Shown here in pieces: positions 27,153-35,286 of a DNA stretch of 37,511 nt. A program made the translations under genes and the position numbers. The DNA comes from a virus, in the IMG/VR virus record IMGVR_UViG_3300045996_003022, positions 1-37,511 of that record. One strand, given 5' to 3'. Position 1 is the stretch's first letter. Each line of letters begins with the position of its first letter. The notes beneath the pieces were generated by a model, which ran no database searches, was not told where the DNA came from, and was given only the letters and a program-made list of their open reading frames with translations.

Positions 27153-29969
27153 TTAGGCTGCTTTTTTAAGTTCATTTATCTCTTTCTTTAGTTCCTTAAC
27201 AGCATTTACTAACGCATAAGTAATAGGCGTTATATCCAATGATTTTATTTTACCAAATTTCTTATTTGGAATTTCTCCAACACATTCTGGCATAACTTCT
27301 AAGACTTCATCAGCGATAAATCCGATGTTTTCCTTATCTCTTATTTTTTTGTTAAAACCTGAGTATTCATTAAATTTAAAATAAACAACATTTAATCCTA
27401 ATATTTCTTTTAAACCGCTATTATATTTTCTGATATCCCTCTTAATTCTGACATCACTAGATGATAGCCAAGATCCTGCTGTCGGTTTATAAACTGAGTC
27501 TGTACTACTCGTAAAACTTGTTACTGGGTTAATTGTTACAGTTGTTCCTTCAATAAATAAAGGTCTATACGCACTATTATCGGTCGATACAGAGGCAATT
27601 GCAGCAGCCGATGTAGAGGCAACAGATATTCTTAGAGAGCAATTAGTTGAGTTAAATGCATGGGTACTGTCCATAAAACCTATACCTCTATTATTTGCCC
27701 TATTAAGTGCCAATACCATGCACATACCTTCATTACTTAAATTACTACTACTGACAACCTCCTGACCAGTTAAAGCAATTCTTGCTGAGTTTTGAACTGT
27801 ATTATATAAGTTTACTAATGAAGTAACGGTTGTAGCTGCTGAAGGATTTCCGACAGAAAATTTGGCTCTAGGGATACTTGTTCCTATACCAACATTACAA
27901 CCATTACCTAAAACTAAGGAATTACTTGCCCCTACTGATGCTCCGTTACCAATAGCTATTGCATTTGTTAAATTATTTGAAGAACAATCCGCAGAGTGCC
28001 CTATTAAAACACAACTTGAATATCCAGAAAAAGATGTGCCCGTAGCATTCCCAAGGAAAACATTACTTCCATTTGTCGTTATAAATGCACCACACGACGT
28101 TCCTATCAAAATATTTCCTACGCCACTTGTAATAGCATTCCCACAACTCACACCTAGCAAAATATTATCCGTCCCTGTTGTTAACGCTGACCCACAACCA
28201 AAGGCCATAAGAACGTTGTTCGATCCAGTTGTTATGGCAGCTCCAGAACCATTGCCAACTACAGTATTGAAACCTGGACCACCTGATGTAGATAATGACG
28301 CGAGACAACCTATCCCAATCCCAGTATTACCAGGATTTCCTGTTATACCTGTTTTTCCACATCCAGTCCCGATAAAAAGATTGCCTAATCCTCCTGTAAA
28401 ACCGGCTCCATAGTCTATAATTCTCGAAGTCCAAGACGGTGCACCGGCACCTCCTGAAATAAGTAACTGATTAGATGAGGCAGAAGCAGCTAAAATAGCA
28501 AGGGCTGAAGCAGCAGAATAAACAATTCCACCATTTGAGGCGGTTAAGTTTGCATTTGTACCGCCCCTACTTAACGCGAGTTGGCCAGTCCATCCCAATG
28601 TTAAAGATGCAGCTCTTAATAAAGCAGTTCCCGGAGTACCGCCCAAAGTTAAAGTAACATTTGTATCGTCGGATCTTGTAAGCGCTTCCCCTGTTATATC
28701 AGTGCCCGGAATTACAGCCCAAGTCGGCGCAGCAGATATCGTACCATTTCCATTTTGTGATAAATATTTAGTCGTAGTTGCCGTGTTTCCAGAAAGTTTA
28801 GCTAATGTATTTGTAGCTGAAGCATAAAGCAAATCACCTAGTGTATAAGTTGATTGATTAGTCCCGCCATAAGCTTCAGTAATTTTAGTGCCATTCCAGG
28901 CACCAGACGTAATAGTTCCTAGTGTCGTAATGGAAGACTGACCAATATAAGTTGGATCAATATCAATTATGGGAGTTGTTCCACCAGAAGATGTAATCCT
29001 GCCAGCGGTGCCAGAAACACTAGTTACTGTTCCACCCGATCCTGTTGCAGAAATAGTGATTGTTCCTGCCCCATTTACTATGCTAACGCCAGATCCAGCC
29101 GTTAAAGTGGCTGCAACAGGTCCCACCCCTGTACTACCTATAATCAATTGCCCATTCGTCATGGTACTTAAAAACGCAAGTGAGTCATATATTGCCTGGC
29201 ATTCATCTCTATAACCTTCGGCATCCGAAGCGCTACTACTTGCGCTAGCAGCTGAAAGGGCAGCAGCAGCAGCAGAGGCTATGGCAGCTGCTTCGGATAA
29301 GGCAGCAGCGGAAGCGCTTGCAGCAGCAGCGGTGGCAGAGCCAGCAGCAGCAGCAGCGGAAGCGCTTGCTTCAGACGCGGCAGCCTCGGCAGCAGCCTGA
29401 GCTTCTTCAGCAGCCTCGGCAGCAGCTTCAGCTTGCTCTACTAACTCTTCAAGGTCTGGCATTGAATATCCACTATCTTTTATAAATTTACCGCCCGTTG
29501 TAGAGGCCCATATTGCAATATTGTCGGTTGTATATGATGTACCTTCGAATTGGACAAAATCATCAGAAGTACTAATTTCACCTTCTGTATTAATCATAAC
29601 ACCGTCATCTAATTCATCTAATGCCTGGGAATTTGGCAAGCTTTCTTCAGCAGTTTTTAATACAAAGGTGGCAGTATTAACAAATGGAACATAACTAGAC
29701 TCTACGGGCTTATTTTCACTATTACCAATCCAAATTTTACCGCTAGTTAAAGACGCTTTTAGATAAGTAGCTGCGATAATATCAACTTGATTTTGTATTC
29801 TGGCAGCGTCAAGCCTTATATCTATAAGAACTGGACTAGGAATCGGCCTGTTAAGAACATCACCTTCCCATACATAGTCCTCTTCTAACGCTGGTAATAA
29901 ACTATGCGATGATAATTTTCCAGTTATTGGAGAAATAAAATACCATAAATAATCTGGTAGTAACTTCAT
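27153..29969 (-). CDS. Tail fibre with YadA-like head and S74 intramolecular chaperone, 938 aa
   Basis: Residues 1-170 form the virion-attachment region. Residues about 175-265 are an Ala/Ser-rich coiled coil (runs such as AEAAAEAAEEAQ) for trimerisation. A shaft with 'GGTNQSTYTLGDLLYAS'-type repeats follows to about 500. Residues about 520-690 are G-x-x-A/G-type repeats ('GNILIGTSCGAFITT', 'NAIAIGNGASVGASNSLVLGNG') like the beta-roll head of YadA-type adhesins. The C-terminus (about 830-938) is the peptidase S74 chaperone of endosialidase, with the S-D-V-R-I-K catalytic Ser/Lys pattern, which trimerises the fibre and is then cleaved off. It is the main host-recognition protein; such genes evolve fast. 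Confidence 0.9.
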   Translation of the reverse strand: MKLLPDYLWYFISPITGKLSSHSLLPALEEDYVWEGDVLNRPIPSPVLIDIRLDAARIQNQVDIIAATYLKASLTSGKIWIGNSENKPVESSYVPFVNTATFVLKTAEESLPNSQALDELDDGVMINTEGEISTSDDFVQFEGTSYTTDNIAIWASTTGGKFIKDSGYSMPDLEELVEQAEAAAEAAEEAQAAAEAAASEASASAAAAAGSATAAAASASAAALSEAAAIASAAAAALSAASASSSASDAEGYRDECQAIYDSLAFLSTMTNGQLIIGSTGVGPVAATLTAGSGVSIVNGAGTITISATGSGGTVTSVSGTAGRITSSGGTTPIIDIDPTYIGQSSITTLGTITSGAWNGTKITEAYGGTNQSTYTLGDLLYASATNTLAKLSGNTATTTKYLSQNGNGTISAAPTWAVIPGTDITGEALTRSDDTNVTLTLGGTPGTALLRAASLTLGWTGQLALSRGGTNANLTASNGGIVYSAASALAILAASASSNQLLISGGAGAPSWTSRIIDYGAGFTGGLGNLFIGTGCGKTGITGNPGNTGIGIGCLASLSTSGGPGFNTVVGNGSGAAITTGSNNVLMAFGCGSALTTGTDNILLGVSCGNAITSGVGNILIGTSCGAFITTNGSNVFLGNATGTSFSGYSSCVLIGHSADCSSNNLTNAIAIGNGASVGASNSLVLGNGCNVGIGTSIPRAKFSVGNPSAATTVTSLVNLYNTVQNSARIALTGQEVVSSSNLSNEGMCMVLALNRANNRGIGFMDSTHAFNSTNCSLRISVASTSAAAIASVSTDNSAYRPLFIEGTTVTINPVTSFTSSTDSVYKPTAGSWLSSSDVRIKRDIRKYNSGLKEILGLNVVYFKFNEYSGFNKKIRDKENIGFIADEVLEVMPECVGEIPNKKFGKIKSLDITPITYALVNAVKELKKEINELKKAA

Positions 29970-30175
29970 TAATTAACTCTTTTAACAACCTTTTTATGGG
30001 ATTCTTCTTTTTTAATAAAATATTCTACAGCTTCATCAGCTTCTTCAACGCCTTCCGCTATTAATTCAGCCTCTTTTAGTTGTACTGGTGTACATCCAAC
30101 TAAAAATACATTAGCAATAATGATTATAGGTATAAGAGTCCATATAATAAAAAGTAAATAATCTCTAATTTTCAT
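29969..30175 (-). CDS. Small lipoprotein, 68 aa
   Basis: Residues 1-27 are a basic start and a long hydrophobic stretch (LLFIIWTLIPIIIIANVF) ending in the lipobox LVGC, so Cys28 would be lipidated. The mature part is a 41-residue charged helix. It is coupled by ATGA to the patatin gene and by TAATG to the fibre gene. It could be an outer-membrane spanin subunit, a superinfection-exclusion lipoprotein, or an escort for the patatin. No Pro-rich o-spanin signature is visible. Confidence 0.65.
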   Translation of the reverse strand: MKIRDYLLFIIWTLIPIIIIANVFLVGCTPVQLKEAELIAEGVEEADEAVEYFIKKEESHKKVVKRVN

Positions 30176-31260
30176 GCTGTTAAATGTCCTAAAAAATTAG
30201 TTATGTTGAAAATATCTGCATCAAACAAAGTATTTGCGGTTGTAGAATAATAAGTCATTGTGTCTGACGAGGTGCTGTCTAATTCTGTATCTTGTGCGGT
30301 ATCTAAAGTTGTATTAAATCTGTAAGTATAAGTAGGCCGAATGGTATATAGCGATTCCTGCCTATAAGCCTCGGCTACAGATTCTTGACCGCCTACTGAA
30401 GCCAACGTAAATAAACCAAATATTTGTGAAATAGTAGAAAAAGCATTAGAAGCTATGAATTCTGGACTTTGGCTTAGATAATAAGCTTCCCATATTTTCG
30501 GATCCGTACAATCTGCTGGTGGATCGGGATTTCCTGACGGATCAAATCCATATTCCCCACGACCAGTACCAATAGATAATAAACAAATTCTTTTAGCCGT
30601 AGGCTTTAATATTTTTCCTAAAGATACACCAAATTGGGAAGGGTTATTATTGTAAACACCCCCGTCTAAATAAGTATGGGATCCGATTGTCCAAGCTGGA
30701 AGATAAACCGGGGCTGCGGAAGTAGCCAGCGCGACATCACTAGCTAACGTATTTTGACCTATATATCCACTTACATTAGCATTAGAAAAAAGCCTAAACG
30801 TCGATGTGTCTTGCTCATAAGAAGTAATTACTACGTTTGTGTTTAAATCTTGTAATGTTTTAGCCCCGAATGTACTTTGAACAGTAGCCTTTAGGAGGCC
30901 CGCACCATAACTAGCCTCAGTTGGCCCGGATGATTGATAGAAAGGCGTATCCGTAGCCACTAGCGCAGTTTTAAATACCGCATTCGGTCTATATGATGCA
31001 AAAAGAGACGATAGACTAAATATGTAGGGGCCTTGCGTCTCAAAGAATGGGTACATTTCCGCAGGAGTCATGCCAGAGGCAAGAGAGAGAGCCATAATTC
31101 CGCCGACTGATGTGCCACAAATCACATCAAATTGATTTGCGATCGTGGCCGGATCAATTCCCCACAATTGAATAAATCTATCTAGCCAATTTAAAGAGAA
31201 ATAACCCCTTTGACCACCGCCATCTATCTCTAAAATTCTTATTGTATTTGGATCTGCCAT
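30172..31260 (-). CDS. Patatin-like phospholipase, 362 aa
   Basis: All patatin motifs are in place: the oxyanion-hole loop DGGGQRG at residues 13-19, the nucleophile elbow GTSVGG with Ser51, the 'DVALATSAAPVYLP' helix (175-188) and the Asp of LDGGVYNNNP at residue 199, which completes the Ser/Asp dyad. Such proteins hydrolyse phospholipid acyl chains. No signal peptide is visible, so it acts in the cytoplasm or inside the virion. It heads the virion operon, before the lipoprotein and fibre. Roles could include membrane damage at lysis or entry; cellular patatins also serve as CBASS effectors, so origin from a defence gene is conceivable. Confidence 0.9.
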   Translation of the reverse strand: MADPNTIRILEIDGGGQRGYFSLNWLDRFIQLWGIDPATIANQFDVICGTSVGGIMALSLASGMTPAEMYPFFETQGPYIFSLSSLFASYRPNAVFKTALVATDTPFYQSSGPTEASYGAGLLKATVQSTFGAKTLQDLNTNVVITSYEQDTSTFRLFSNANVSGYIGQNTLASDVALATSAAPVYLPAWTIGSHTYLDGGVYNNNPSQFGVSLGKILKPTAKRICLLSIGTGRGEYGFDPSGNPDPPADCTDPKIWEAYYLSQSPEFIASNAFSTISQIFGLFTLASVGGQESVAEAYRQESLYTIRPTYTYRFNTTLDTAQDTELDSTSSDTMTYYSTTANTLFDADIFNITNFLGHLTA

Positions 31261-32821: not shown

Positions 32822-33211
32822 ATGGCTAATTTACTGGAAGAAACTTTAGAAGTATTAGAAGATAATGGGAAAAAATCAGACGATGTTAAATGGATTGGAT
32901 GTGATGATATATGGTTTAGCTTCTCCGAATTTTCTGAATTGGCAAATTTTGATTACGATAATGGCTATGGGGGCCAAATTATTAATTATTCTTTAGTAGT
33001 AGTTGGAGATGATTGGTGGTTAGAGCGCCATGAATATGATGGGGCAGAAGGCTGGGAATTCAAACAATTACCAAAGAAACCTGAACGAGAAGACAAATCA
33101 GAAACTTATATTCAACAAATAAGCAGGCGTGAATTGCTTAACGATGGGTACAAAGATTGTTTACCCGAAGAATTACTAGATGCTGTTTATAGGAGACGTT
33201 ATAATGAGTAA
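32822..33211 (+). CDS. Hypothetical GDDWW-motif protein, copy 1, 129 aa
   Basis: Small acidic protein with a conserved stretch 'SLVVVGDDWWLERHEYDGAEGWEFKQLP' (about residues 58-86) of unknown function. Copy 2 follows immediately, and the two overlap by 8 nt. Shared elements are an N-terminal 'LLEETLEVLE' helix, a 'FDYD' segment and the GDxWW strand pair, so they arose by tandem duplication. The compact WW/aromatic core suggests a binding domain. Confidence 0.75.
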   Translation: MANLLEETLEVLEDNGKKSDDVKWIGCDDIWFSFSEFSELANFDYDNGYGGQIINYSLVVVGDDWWLERHEYDGAEGWEFKQLPKKPEREDKSETYIQQISRRELLNDGYKDCLPEELLDAVYRRRYNE

Positions 33212-33641
33212 TTTTTTAGAAGACACAATTAGCGCCTTAGAACAGGAAGAAAAGGAACCGAAAGATGTTGTTTTTGTTGCGAATATGAATATAAACAATA
33301 GATTTCGGTGTACATGGGAAGATTTTGCCAAAAATGCCAACTTTGGTTACGATCCACATGCTAGCTTTACAGACATTGACGAAGATTTAATTATTGTCGG
33401 TGATAATTGGTGGTTTGAATGGGAAAGACATAAAACAGGATTCCACTGCTGGGAATTTAAAACTATGCCCGTTAAAGAAGAGCTTAAACATAGGAAAAAA
33501 TTAACAGAATACGATTTTTTAAATATGTATAAACATGTGAAACCTTATCAACCTGGAACTGGAATTAAAGCCAAAGATATTAAAGATGAGTCGGATCTGC
33601 TTGGTGACCTGATAAGAGAAAGAGACAGTAAAAATGAATAA
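33204..33641 (+). CDS. Hypothetical GDNWW-motif protein, copy 2, 145 aa
   Basis: Paralogue of the preceding gene: 'SNFLEDTISALEQ', 'FGYD' and 'DLIIVGDNWWFEWERHKTGFHCWEFKTMP' align with it. A longer C-terminal tail is present (ends GDLIRERDSKNE). I set the start at the ATG at 33204, behind AGGAGA, overlapping the previous stop; an upstream frame opening at 33180 ignores that site. Function unknown. Confidence 0.75.
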   Translation: MSNFLEDTISALEQEEKEPKDVVFVANMNINNRFRCTWEDFAKNANFGYDPHASFTDIDEDLIIVGDNWWFEWERHKTGFHCWEFKTMPVKEELKHRKKLTEYDFLNMYKHVKPYQPGTGIKAKDIKDESDLLGDLIRERDSKNE

Positions 33642-34047
33642 AAAACGCTCAAAACTAGATGAATTAAATGAATTATACGAAAAACAAACTTATACAGAAA
33701 AACAACTATCAAAATTCAGAAAACTTAGAGAAAAATGGATAGAAGAATTTAATAATCTTGATGAAAAAACTAAAGAAGAAACAAATAATGAAACAAATAA
33801 GGAAACAAAAATAATAGAAGAAAGTAAAAGTGGTCCAGATCCAATCTTATGGTTTGAAAGTATAGAGTCTGACATACCTATTATTGAGTATGGAAAATTA
33901 ATTGGATTTACTAAAATTTACGGAAAAAGAACAGCTATCAGAGAAAGCGATTTTGAAAATGGGTATGATTGGAAGGTGGTACATAAAAATGGTAAACCAC
34001 ATTCAATGAAGAAAGTAAAATATTCTAAAGTAATAAACAATGAGTGA
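33634..34047 (+). CDS. Hypothetical protein, 137 aa
   Basis: N-terminal 60 residues are a charged coiled coil with low-complexity Asn/Glu/Thr repeats (KEETNNETNKETK); the C-terminal 70 residues form an alpha/beta domain with a 'GYDWKVVHKNGKPHSMK' end. Overlaps the previous gene by 8 nt and the next by 8 nt. No family recognised. Confidence 0.65.
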   Translation: MNKKRSKLDELNELYEKQTYTEKQLSKFRKLREKWIEEFNNLDEKTKEETNNETNKETKIIEESKSGPDPILWFESIESDIPIIEYGKLIGFTKIYGKRTAIRESDFENGYDWKVVHKNGKPHSMKKVKYSKVINNE

Positions 34048-34207
34048 CTCAAAAGACCTATCTACAGAAGTAAAGACTGTTTTGCATGGTGAAATTTTAG
34101 ATAACAATAAAATATGTGAACCTCATTCAATGCTTTATGGAAAAACTACTACTAAAAAAGATTGTTCATTATGTAATGCATTATATAATTATTGGTTGAG
34201 AGGATAG
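34040..34207 (+). CDS. Small putative zinc-binding protein, 55 aa
   Basis: ATG overlaps the preceding stop (ATGAGTGA). Cys/His spacing C-x2-H (CEPH, residues 26-29) and C-x2-C (CSLC, 42-45) suggests one metal site. The last 15 nt are antisense to the 3' end of tRNA-Tyr (34193-34277), so the two convergent transcripts collide here. The frame is short and has no clear ribosome site beyond coupling. Confidence 0.5.
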   Translation: MSDSKDLSTEVKTVLHGEILDNNKICEPHSMLYGKTTTKKDCSLCNALYNYWLRG

Positions 34208-34277
34208 GATTTGAACCTATGAAGCCAGAGGCACCGAATTTACAGTCCGGCCGTTTTAGCCACTCACGCACCTCTCA
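34193..34277 (-). tRNA. tRNA-Tyr(GTA)
   Basis: A complete 85-nt tRNA with all arms: acceptor TGAGAGG/CCTCTCA, D stem CGT/ACG, anticodon stem CCGGA/TTCGG around loop CTGTAAA (anticodon GTA), a long variable arm (GCC/GGC) and a T arm ATAGG/CCTAT with loop TTCAAAT. A discriminator A and encoded CCA (ACCA) follow. The arms match bacterial type-II tRNA-Tyr. It is the last gene of the leftward RNA cluster; its 3' end overlaps the antisense zinc-ribbon gene. Confidence 0.9.
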
Positions 34278-34335
34278 ATACATCTCTTACTTTATAAACT
34301 AATACGCCTACTTTATAAAGTAAGCCCATAATAAG

Positions 34336-34498
34336 TCGGAACGGGCAGGAATTGCACCTGCTTGGTATTGATTGATAGCTTAATACCGGGCCCTTACTGT
34401 CCTAGGATACACAAGCTATAACTTTATGACTGTGCTTTCTACCCAGCTTATCATTTCGTATAGATGCCCTACACTTCACTGTCAGTGCTGCCGTTCCG
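34336..34498 (-). ncRNA. Long tRNA-like RNA A, about 163 nt
   Basis: On the minus strand an 8-bp acceptor-like helix CGGAACGG/CCGTTCCG closes the whole RNA, with ACTT after it. Next to the 5' strand a 5-bp arm GCACT/AGTGT carries loop GACAGTGA (D-like). Before the 3' strand is a 5-bp arm GCAGG/CCTGC with loop TGCAATT (T-like). In between are a GGTATT/AATACC hairpin and a central arm AAGCT/AGCTT with a 27-nt loop containing ACAGTCATAAAGTT. RNA B at 34509-34673 shares this plan with covarying stems. The loop and size exclude an ordinary tRNA; a new tRNA-like RNA class is inferred. Confidence 0.7.
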
Positions 34499-34508
34499 TA
34501 AAATCAAG

Positions 34509-34673
34509 TGACAACAGGCCAGAATTGCACTGACTCGCGGAAATCACATCAGTACTCCACTGCTTCTTACCTAAATAAATAGAGCCTGGGATTTCGCTTG
34601 AGAATTTAAACCTTCTGACTGCGGCTTCTCAAGGCCAGGTTACATGTGCTTCGCTGTCAGCACCGCTGTTGTC
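34509..34673 (-). ncRNA. Long tRNA-like RNA B, about 165 nt
   Basis: An 8-bp acceptor-like helix GACAACAG/CTGTTGTC is followed by ACTT. The D-like arm GTGCT/AGCAC has loop GACAGCGA and the T-like arm GTCAG/CTGGC has loop TGCAATT. The central arm is CCTGG/CCAGG plus 8 bp CTTGAGAA/TTCTCAAG around a 21-nt loop with GCAGTCAGAAGGTT. A small hairpin (CAGT/ACTG) lies before the T arm. Compared with RNA A, loops are conserved while stems differ but still pair, which supports a real RNA. The central loop replaces an anticodon; its function is unknown. Confidence 0.7.
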
Positions 34674-34683
34674 GTCAAACTAG

Positions 34684-34757
34684 TGGGGCATGGACAGGAC
34701 TCGAACCTGCGCCGGTGGATTAAATGTCCAATGCTCTACCAACTGAGCTACCTTGCC
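34684..34757 (-). tRNA. Aberrant tRNA-Lys-like gene (anticodon TTT)
   Basis: D-arm and T-arm are canonical (GGTAGCTCAGTTGGTAGAGC; GCAGG TTCGAGT CCTGT). The anticodon loop is CATTTAA, giving TTT for lysine, but position 33 is A instead of the nearly universal T, and the top pair of the anticodon stem (T-C) is mismatched. The acceptor GGCAAGG/CCATGCC has one A-A mismatch, and two extra G-C pairs extend it outward (GGGGCAAGG/CCATGCCCC, to 34759). No encoded CCA (ACTA instead). It may be a decaying tRNA or a specialised one; function doubtful. Confidence 0.65.
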
Positions 34758-34769
34758 CCATAAACAAGC

Positions 34770-34896
34770 GGCCAATAAAAATCTGATGCATGAATTTAGG
34801 CTTCATGCTGCCGTATAGGAACCCCGTTACAGCACCCTCAGTTACACCACGGGACCAAAGCAAGCAACTTCAAAGGGTGTGAAAGCTTTATTGGCC
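34770..34896 (-). ncRNA. Structured RNA C, about 127 nt
   Basis: A perfect 10-bp closing helix (GGCCAATAAA at the 5' end, TTTATTGGCC at the 3' end, 34770-34779 with 34887-34896) encloses two arms: a 6-bp TCCCGT/ACGGGG stem with a 21-nt loop, and a 7-bp GCATGAA/TTCATGC hairpin with 7-nt loop GCCTAAA. It begins exactly where the upstream promoter should start transcription. It resembles RNAs A and B in a long closing helix followed by GCTT and a central 21-nt loop, but lacks a T-like arm, so kinship is uncertain. Confidence 0.55.
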
Positions 34897-34902
34897 AATT
34901 TG

Positions 34903-34930
34903 ATTATAACAGAAATTGATTATTATTCAA
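34903..34930 (-). promoter_or_regulatory. Promoter of the RNA cluster
   Basis: Minus-strand TTGAAT (34925-34930), a 16-nt spacer and consensus TATAAT (34903-34908). The expected start is about 34896, the first base of RNA C. It drives all RNAs from 34896 to 34193. Confidence 0.7.
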
Positions 34931-34959: not shown

Positions 34960-35286
34960 TTATCGGGCCAATAAGCTTTCATCAAAATTAACATTATATT
35001 TTCTATTAGCTATTTCAACAGCTTCATCTACTGTTTTTCCTTCATTTATATAATTAATAGCCGTATGTTGCCACATCCATTTTTTTTCATAATTGATAGG
35101 CTCTGTTTGAAAACTAATATGTTCTAACTCTTTCAAAGGATAGTTAAAATCGTTATAACCAGCTTCATGAAATACAAAGTTAGAAAATGATATATTATCT
35201 TCTGTCACAAGAGCTTCATCAAAATTAATATCGCCAGATATTTTTTTTATTTTAATTAATGATTCTATTAGTTTACTAATCTTCAT
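34960..35286 (-). CDS. Hypothetical protein, 108 aa
   Basis: Unrecognised acidic protein with a helical N-terminus (KISKLIESLIKIKK), a central beta-rich part and an 'EGKTVDEAVEIANRKYNV' helix near the end. Last gene of the leftward accessory block. Overlaps the upstream gene by 11 nt; the RNA-cluster promoter lies 30 bp after its stop. Confidence 0.65.
   Translation of the reverse strand: MKISKLIESLIKIKKISGDINFDEALVTEDNISFSNFVFHEAGYNDFNYPLKELEHISFQTEPINYEKKWMWQHTAINYINEGKTVDEAVEIANRKYNVNFDESLLAR

What the first reader, a model, noticed from the sequence alone, without database searches (positions are those of the whole stretch)
34193..34930. A five-RNA cluster with its own promoter, convergent with protein genes
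One promoter (34903-34930) can drive RNA C, tRNA-Lys-like, RNA B, RNA A and tRNA-Tyr in that order. The downstream end meets the rightward gene at 34040-34207, whose last 15 nt are antisense to tRNA-Tyr. Mixing one standard tRNA with tRNA-like RNAs suggests processing by host RNase P and RNase Z, and a shared purpose such as resisting tRNA cleavage.
Basis: inference. Interest (0 to 1): 0.7.

Follow-up and report, generated by a model that had tools for sequence, protein, structure and literature searches.

The report
Undescribed tRNA-like RNA family in phages
Two of the five small RNAs in this phage cluster belong to a previously undescribed, widespread family of phage RNAs that copy the top half of a tRNA but carry an interchangeable, highly variable domain where the anticodon arm should be.

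Summary
On the minus strand, in order: a predicted extended -10 promoter (34930-34903), RNA C, a deviant tRNA-Lys(UUU)-like RNA, RNA B, RNA A and a normal tRNA-Tyr(GUA) with encoded CCA, ending 15 nt antisense to a 55-codon ORF. RNA A (34336-34498) and RNA B (34509-34673) are members of one undescribed RNA family. Its parts are an 8-bp acceptor, a linker (mostly CG), a 5-bp D-arm with loop GACAGYGA, a variable insert (32-192 nt), an invariant A, and a 5-bp T-arm with loop UGCAAUU. I found 92 distinct members in 87 contigs, in podo-, myo- and siphovirus-type phages. A covariance model built without the window finds A and B at E about 1e-20 and nothing else in the window. No Rfam family matches, and no copy was found in the isolate phages, plasmids or bacterial genomes searched. 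Inserts behave as cargo: related phages carry unrelated inserts at the same locus, and the same insert appears in unrelated loci. Several members lie 7-12 nt from same-strand tRNAs. Processing by tRNA enzymes is likely; an anti-host role is plausible but unproven.

The parts
34903..34930 (-). Predicted sigma-70 extended -10 promoter TTGAAT-16-TATAAT with TG
   Evidence: prediction only
34770..34896 (-). RNA C: structured 5' leader or RNA closed by GGCCAAUAAA/UUUUUAUUGGCC; unclassified
   Evidence: fold z -2.46; no Rfam match; not a member of the R1 family
34684..34759 (-). tRNA-Lys(UUU)-like RNA with a 9-bp acceptor (GGGGCAAGG/CCAUGCCCC, one A.A mismatch), A33 instead of U33, and a U27.C43 mismatch
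   Evidence: ARAGORN and Rfam call 34685-34757; deviations read from the sequence
34509..34673 (-). RNA B: member of the GACAG/UGCAAUU tRNA-like family; insert 111 nt
   Evidence: R1 model excluding the window: 71.6 bits, E 1.1e-20; 8/8 acceptor, 5/5 D, 5/5 T pairs
34535..34645 (-). Variable insert of RNA B
   Evidence: no significant relative among the other inserts
34336..34498 (-). RNA A: member of the same family; insert 109 nt
   Evidence: R1 model excluding the window: 70.2 bits, E 3.1e-20
34362..34470 (-). Variable insert of RNA A, with a possible pseudoknot AUAGCUU/AAGCUAU with GGUAUU/AAUACC
   Evidence: 4/40 shuffles as good; not significant alone
34286..34324 (-). Inverted repeat between RNA A and tRNA-Tyr; weak terminator-like or processing hairpin
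34193..34277 (-). tRNA-Tyr(GUA), canonical, with encoded CCA
34040..34207 (+). 55-codon ORF convergent with the cluster; last 15 nt antisense to tRNA-Tyr; its start overlaps the preceding ORF
   Evidence: no Pfam or PHROG match

Best explanation
RNA A and RNA B are two members of an undescribed phage family of tRNA-like noncoding RNAs. Shown by comparison: the ends form an 8-bp acceptor next to a 5-bp T-arm (loop UGCAAUU), joined to a 5-bp D-arm (loop GACAGYGA), and a variable insert replaces the anticodon arm. Inferred: the D- and T-loops form a tRNA-type elbow; the RNAs are cut out of a precursor shared with tRNAs by host RNase P and 3' tRNA nucleases; the tRNA-like end makes them stable. 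Most speculative: the exposed insert is an exchangeable effector or decoy that acts in trans on host machinery, most likely a defence or RNA-handling function.
For: Motif-only matches outside the window: 75 of 110 have an 8/8 acceptor in the expected register, 0 in any of eight shifted registers; the unimposed outer T- and D-stem pairs behave the same way. Compensatory changes occur at every acceptor and D-stem pair and at T pairs 1-4. Reciprocal baits agree: a D-arm-only bait gives UGCAAUU in 11 of 11 structured hits; a T-arm-only bait gives GACAGYGA in 31 of 36 full folds and near variants in 5, with A before the T-stem in 36/36. Model R1, built without the window, finds A and B at E about 1e-20. 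Members occur in unrelated phages: podovirus-type, tail-sheath and tape-measure lineages. Cargo behaviour: homologous flanks with unrelated inserts (L005, L033, L106) and the same insert with unrelated flanks (insert subfamilies). Neighbouring genes are mostly on the same strand; AAA_24 near 18 loci, DUF669-like near 13, Tad2-like anti-defence near 7. tRNAs within 1 kb of 19/92 members against 7.9 expected, all same-strand, seven at 7-12 nt.
Against: No transcription or processing data exist, and the host is unknown. Most members were fetched with one or both loop motifs fixed, so loop invariance rests on the two smaller reciprocal tests. Inserts show only weak excess structure (mean z -0.73 for a pseudoknot score), and 66 of 92 have no sequence relative, so a defined effector function is not shown. 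Inserts show no unusual complementarity to their own phage genomes, which argues against antisense action on the phage itself.
Confidence: 0.6

Rival explanations
1. The cluster as a whole is a tRNA-replacement kit: the RNAs resupply or shield tRNAs cut by host anticodon nucleases, and A and B are nuclease-resistant decoys.
For: tRNA-Tyr and tRNA-Lys(UUU) are known targets of retron-Eco7 and PrrC, and a tRNA-Lys variant counters PARIS (PMC11555353, PMC10264068). The Lys-like RNA has A33 beside the PrrC cut (from memory). All three tRNA-Tyr genes near family members lie beside loci with two copies (window, L093, L183).
Against: A and B have no anticodon arm, so they cannot bait an anticodon nuclease through it. 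Neighbouring tRNAs elsewhere are varied (Asn, Gln, Phe, Met and others), and most members have no tRNA nearby. In PMC11555353 rescue needed an intact anticodon and stem-loops.
Confidence: 0.2
2. A tmRNA-like or aminoacylated RNA that enters the ribosome with the insert as a coding or ribosome-binding part.
For: The overall plan (acceptor, D-arm and T-arm with a replaced anticodon arm) is that of the tRNA-like part of tmRNA.
Against: ARAGORN finds no tmRNA in these contigs, and the three member loci scanned with Rfam gave no tmRNA match. All acceptor pairs vary and the discriminator is A in only 60 of 92, so no single synthetase identity is kept. Inserts can be as short as 32 nt.
Confidence: 0.1
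3. A cis-acting element: the fold only separates transcripts or regulates the next gene.
For: Most members sit inside same-strand gene runs (52 of 92 with both neighbours on the same strand). RNA C starts at the predicted transcription start.
Against: No constant gene lies downstream. The insert, which would be the sensing part, is the least conserved part. Two copies can occur in one cluster.
Confidence: 0.15
4. A small mobile or selfish RNA element that uses the tRNA-like ends for its own spread.
For: Found in unrelated phages; the same insert occurs with unrelated flanks.
Against: No encoded protein; acceptors differ among copies that share one insert, and exchange of cargo explains the same facts. 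Insertion boundaries were not examined.
Confidence: 0.1

Closest known systems
YrlA (Y RNA-like A, Rfam RF02553)
   Same: A noncoding RNA with a tRNA-like acceptor/D/T module and another domain (family knowledge, from memory)
   Different: No RF02553 match in the window, nor in an Rfam scan of three member loci at E up to 10; here a hypervariable insert lies between D- and T-arms
tmRNA (Rfam RF00023)
   Same: tRNA-like ends with the anticodon arm replaced by a long domain
   Different: No tmRNA call in the contigs; variable acceptor and discriminator; inserts as short as 32 nt; unrelated inserts
Phage tRNA clusters (T5-like tRNA-rich regions)
   Same: tRNA-Tyr and tRNA-Lys(UUU)-like co-oriented in a short-spaced cluster behind a predicted promoter
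   Different: Two of the members are not tRNAs but the new tRNA-like RNAs; the Lys-like RNA deviates at position 33 and in the acceptor
ROOL and GOLLD (large structured RNAs)
   Same: Large structured RNAs of unknown function, often linked with phages (PMC12286853; phage link partly from memory)
   Different: Window RNAs are about 165 nt, with tRNA-like ends and no Rfam match

Membership tests
New GACAG/UGCAAUU tRNA-like phage RNA family (this work) | 8-bp acceptor, linker 2, 5-bp D-arm with GACAGYGA, A before a 5-bp T-arm with UGCAAUU | tested here: met
   RNA A and B: all pairs present; model E 3.1e-20 and 1.1e-20
New GACAG/UGCAAUU tRNA-like phage RNA family (this work) | RNA C belongs to it | tested here: not met
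   No R1 match to RNA C at E up to 10
tRNA (Rfam RF00005) | tRNA-Tyr and the tRNA-Lys-like RNA score as tRNA | tested here: met
   55.3 and 58.2 bits, cut-off 29
tRNA (Rfam RF00005) | RNA A and B score as tRNA or have an anticodon arm | tested here: not met
   No Rfam match at E up to 1; 109-111-nt insert in place of the anticodon arm
tRNA (conventional elongator) | tRNA-Lys-like RNA keeps U33 and a 7-bp paired acceptor | tested here: not met
   A33, A.A mismatch, extendable to a 9-bp acceptor
YrlA (RF02553) | Match to the covariance model | tested here: not met
YrlA (RF02553) | Binds a Ro60/Rsr protein | not testable with these tools
   needs biochemistry
tmRNA (RF00023) | Match to the model or an ARAGORN tmRNA call with tag peptide | tested here: not met
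tmRNA (RF00023) | Aminoacylation | not testable with these tools
   needs biochemistry
tRNA operon-type processing | Cleavage by RNase P and 3' tRNase at the acceptor ends | not testable with these tools
   leader and spacer anatomy fits only

The most novel reading that the evidence does not exclude
Phages carry a general-purpose RNA delivery format: a fixed tRNA-mimicking end that recruits host tRNA maturation for stability, and an exchangeable RNA cargo that acts against different host targets, evolving by cargo swapping like anti-defence genes.
Probability: 0.35. Interest if true: 0.9.

Novelty: new variant of a known kind. Interest (0 to 1): 0.75.

Why it matters
A structured RNA family with over 90 members, unknown to Rfam and to the literature searched, spans phages of different tail types and is absent from the isolate collections searched. 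If the inserts are exchangeable effectors, it would be an RNA counterpart of anti-defence gene islands, and it gives a simple bait (GACAGYGA plus UGCAAUU) to find many more. It also makes the question of what non-tRNA RNAs in phage tRNA clusters do directly testable.

Tried and rejected
RNA C as a third family member: no R1 match. Rfam match for A, B or C: none. YrlA: none. Inserts as antisense to the own phage genome: longest matches equal to shuffles. A common H-type pseudoknot in all inserts: suggestive in some (L005/L006, L152 group, RNA A) but only a weak average excess. Host copies: three genome-contig hits fail the fold; 0 of 385 alphaproteobacterial genomes, none in E. coli; only chance-level partial hits in isolate phages and plasmids. 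Gene content shared by all carriers: rejected, since the lineages are unrelated. Canonical T-arms inside inserts as a general feature: only 2 of 92.

Full report
The observation. The window is an IMG/VR virus record of 37,511 bases. ARAGORN and Rfam see only the two tRNAs. tRNA-Tyr is canonical, with anticodon GUA and an encoded CCA. The ORF 34040-34207 overlaps it by exactly 15 nt. The region is 43-49% G+C in a setting of 23-33%, as expected for structured RNAs in an AT-rich genome. The promoter is the best in its 4.5 kb, and one that good with TG is rare in shuffles of the intergenic stretch (0.65%), but it remains a prediction.

The tRNA-Lys-like RNA is odd. It scores well as a tRNA (58.2 bits), but position 33 is A instead of the near-universal U, pair 27-43 is U.C, and pair 5-68 is A.A. 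The acceptor can be extended to nine pairs (GGGGCAAGG/CCAUGCCCC), which leaves an A discriminator. These points are read directly from the sequence. It may be a poor decoder or a decoy; nothing here tests that.

RNA A and RNA B are one family. Aligned, they share CTGACAGYGAAG near the 5' end and GTGCAATTC near the 3' end, with different stems around them. Searching viral contigs for that pair of motifs gave further contigs. The genuine ones had the same fold: an 8-bp acceptor (one with an indel), linker 2, a 5-bp D-arm with loop GACAGYGA, an insert, a 5-bp T-arm with loop UGCAAUU, then the 3' acceptor strand; one viral hit (L018) was a chance match without the fold. A G-C closed variant of the D-arm proved commoner, at 90 stretches. 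In all, 92 distinct RNAs in 87 contigs were collected, with more in later scans.

This is not an artefact of selection. Of 110 distinct motif-only matches outside the window, where pairing was not required, 75 have a perfect 8-bp acceptor in the expected register and none in any of eight shifted registers. The unimposed outer pairs of the T- and D-stems behave the same way. All acceptor and D-stem pairs, and T-stem pairs 1-4, show compensatory changes (those rows were chosen for pairing, so one search is the control). Because most searches fixed both loops, two reciprocal tests matter. With the D-arm alone as bait, the T-loop is UGCAAUU in 11 of 11 structured hits. With the T-arm alone as bait, 36 hits have the full fold: 31 have GACAGYGA and 5 a near variant, and all 36 have A immediately before the T-stem. 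A covariance model from 50 non-window RNAs finds exactly A and B in the window, at E 3.1e-20 and 1.1e-20 (E-values are rough).

Where it occurs. Carriers are unrelated phages: the window's podovirus-type lineage, a group with a different terminase, a phage with a tail sheath, and one with a long tape-measure protein. The portal protein of the window is closest, at 25% identity, to a phage of the Rickettsiales endosymbiont Megaira among isolates, so the host may be an uncultured alphaproteobacterium; this is a weak lead. The RNA was not found in 50,697 isolate phage records, in plasmids, in E. coli, or in 385 genomes of the class drawn around a Rhizobium. The three hits among 84,980 species genomes lack the fold; that scan used only the minority D-arm type with 90-120 nt between the motifs, so absence from bacteria is not proven.

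The insert behaves as cargo. Nine small groups of inserts are alike; 66 of 92 have no relative. Within groups, sequence is well conserved while acceptors often differ. Three phages with homologous flanks (L005, L033, L106) carry unrelated inserts, while insert groups such as L005/L006/L139/L149/L175 sit between unrelated genes. The two copies in one phage, as in the window, are also unrelated. The L005/L006 pair shows compensatory changes compatible with a pseudoknot next to the T-arm, but a general pseudoknot is only weakly supported.

Setting. Neighbours are usually on the same strand, and recurrent families are early or recombination functions: an AAA_24 protein (18 loci), a DUF669-like protein (13), and a Tad2-like Thoeris anti-defence protein (7). 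tRNAs lie within 1 kb of 19 of 92 members, against 7.9 expected, always on the same strand; seven lie 7-12 nt away. That spacing, and AU-rich leaders usually ending in U, suggest shared tRNA-type processing. In L200 the neighbour is another deviant tRNA-like RNA with an 8-bp acceptor.

Mechanism. The fixed part mimics the elbow and acceptor of a tRNA, so maturation by RNase P and 3' tRNases, and resistance to other nucleases, are the natural inference. Variable acceptor pairs and discriminators argue against one aminoacylated species, and the lack of an anticodon arm argues against decoding. Exchange of inserts at a fixed locus and their spread between loci suggest conflict-driven effectors, hence the proposal of trans-acting decoys or inhibitors; this last step is inference.

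Comparison with the known. No Rfam 15 family matches. YrlA and tmRNA are the nearest in plan, and both fail as memberships. Literature searches found no description, within a library that lacks most subscription papers. I therefore file it as a new family of the known kind of tRNA-mimicking noncoding RNAs.

Noticed in passing
window 34880-34899 and 34962-34981; also 34770-34779: GGCCAATAA occurs three times around the promoter; one pair forms a 20-nt inverted repeat (75%) flanking the promoter, and ATTGGCCAAT is a palindrome at the predicted start, possibly an operator or alternative pairing for RNA C.
   Followed up: partly
L200:6367-6449(-): A tRNA-like gene 7 nt from a family member, with an 8-bp acceptor GACAACAG/CTGTTGTC identical to that of RNA B and an abnormal anticodon loop.
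   Followed up: partly
L246:690-761(-): A tRNA scored by Rfam (55.6 bits) carries the UGCAAUU T-loop, so this T-loop is not unique to the new family.
   Followed up: no
L230:2023-2039, L233:3317-3333, L238:7377-7393, L248:6318-6334: Other T-arms with UGCAAUU, some in tRNA clusters, that lack the D-arm of the family; possibly further tRNA-like RNAs. L248 has an isolate-style contig id.
   Followed up: partly
L007 insert (locus 1716-1874) and L153 insert (locus 2646-2771): Inserts containing a canonical tRNA T-arm (GTTGGTTCAATCCTAAC, GTTGGTTCGACTCCAAC).
   Followed up: no
L220:5702-5829, L179:1663-1820, L195:1640-1775: Second copies of the family RNA with D-loop variants GACAGAGA, GACAGGGA and GACAGTGG.
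   Followed up: partly
window 30172-31260(-): Patatin-like phospholipase gene (Pfam PF01734, E 9e-26) next to a tail fibre-like gene with a Peptidase_S74 chaperone domain (27153-29969).
   Followed up: no
window 32822-33641(+): Two adjacent ORFs matching the same unknown PHROG (phrog_3972), suggesting a gene duplication.
   Followed up: no
L133:545-979(-) and six other loci: Tad2-like (Thoeris anti-defence) genes near family members, median offset -167 nt.
   Followed up: partly
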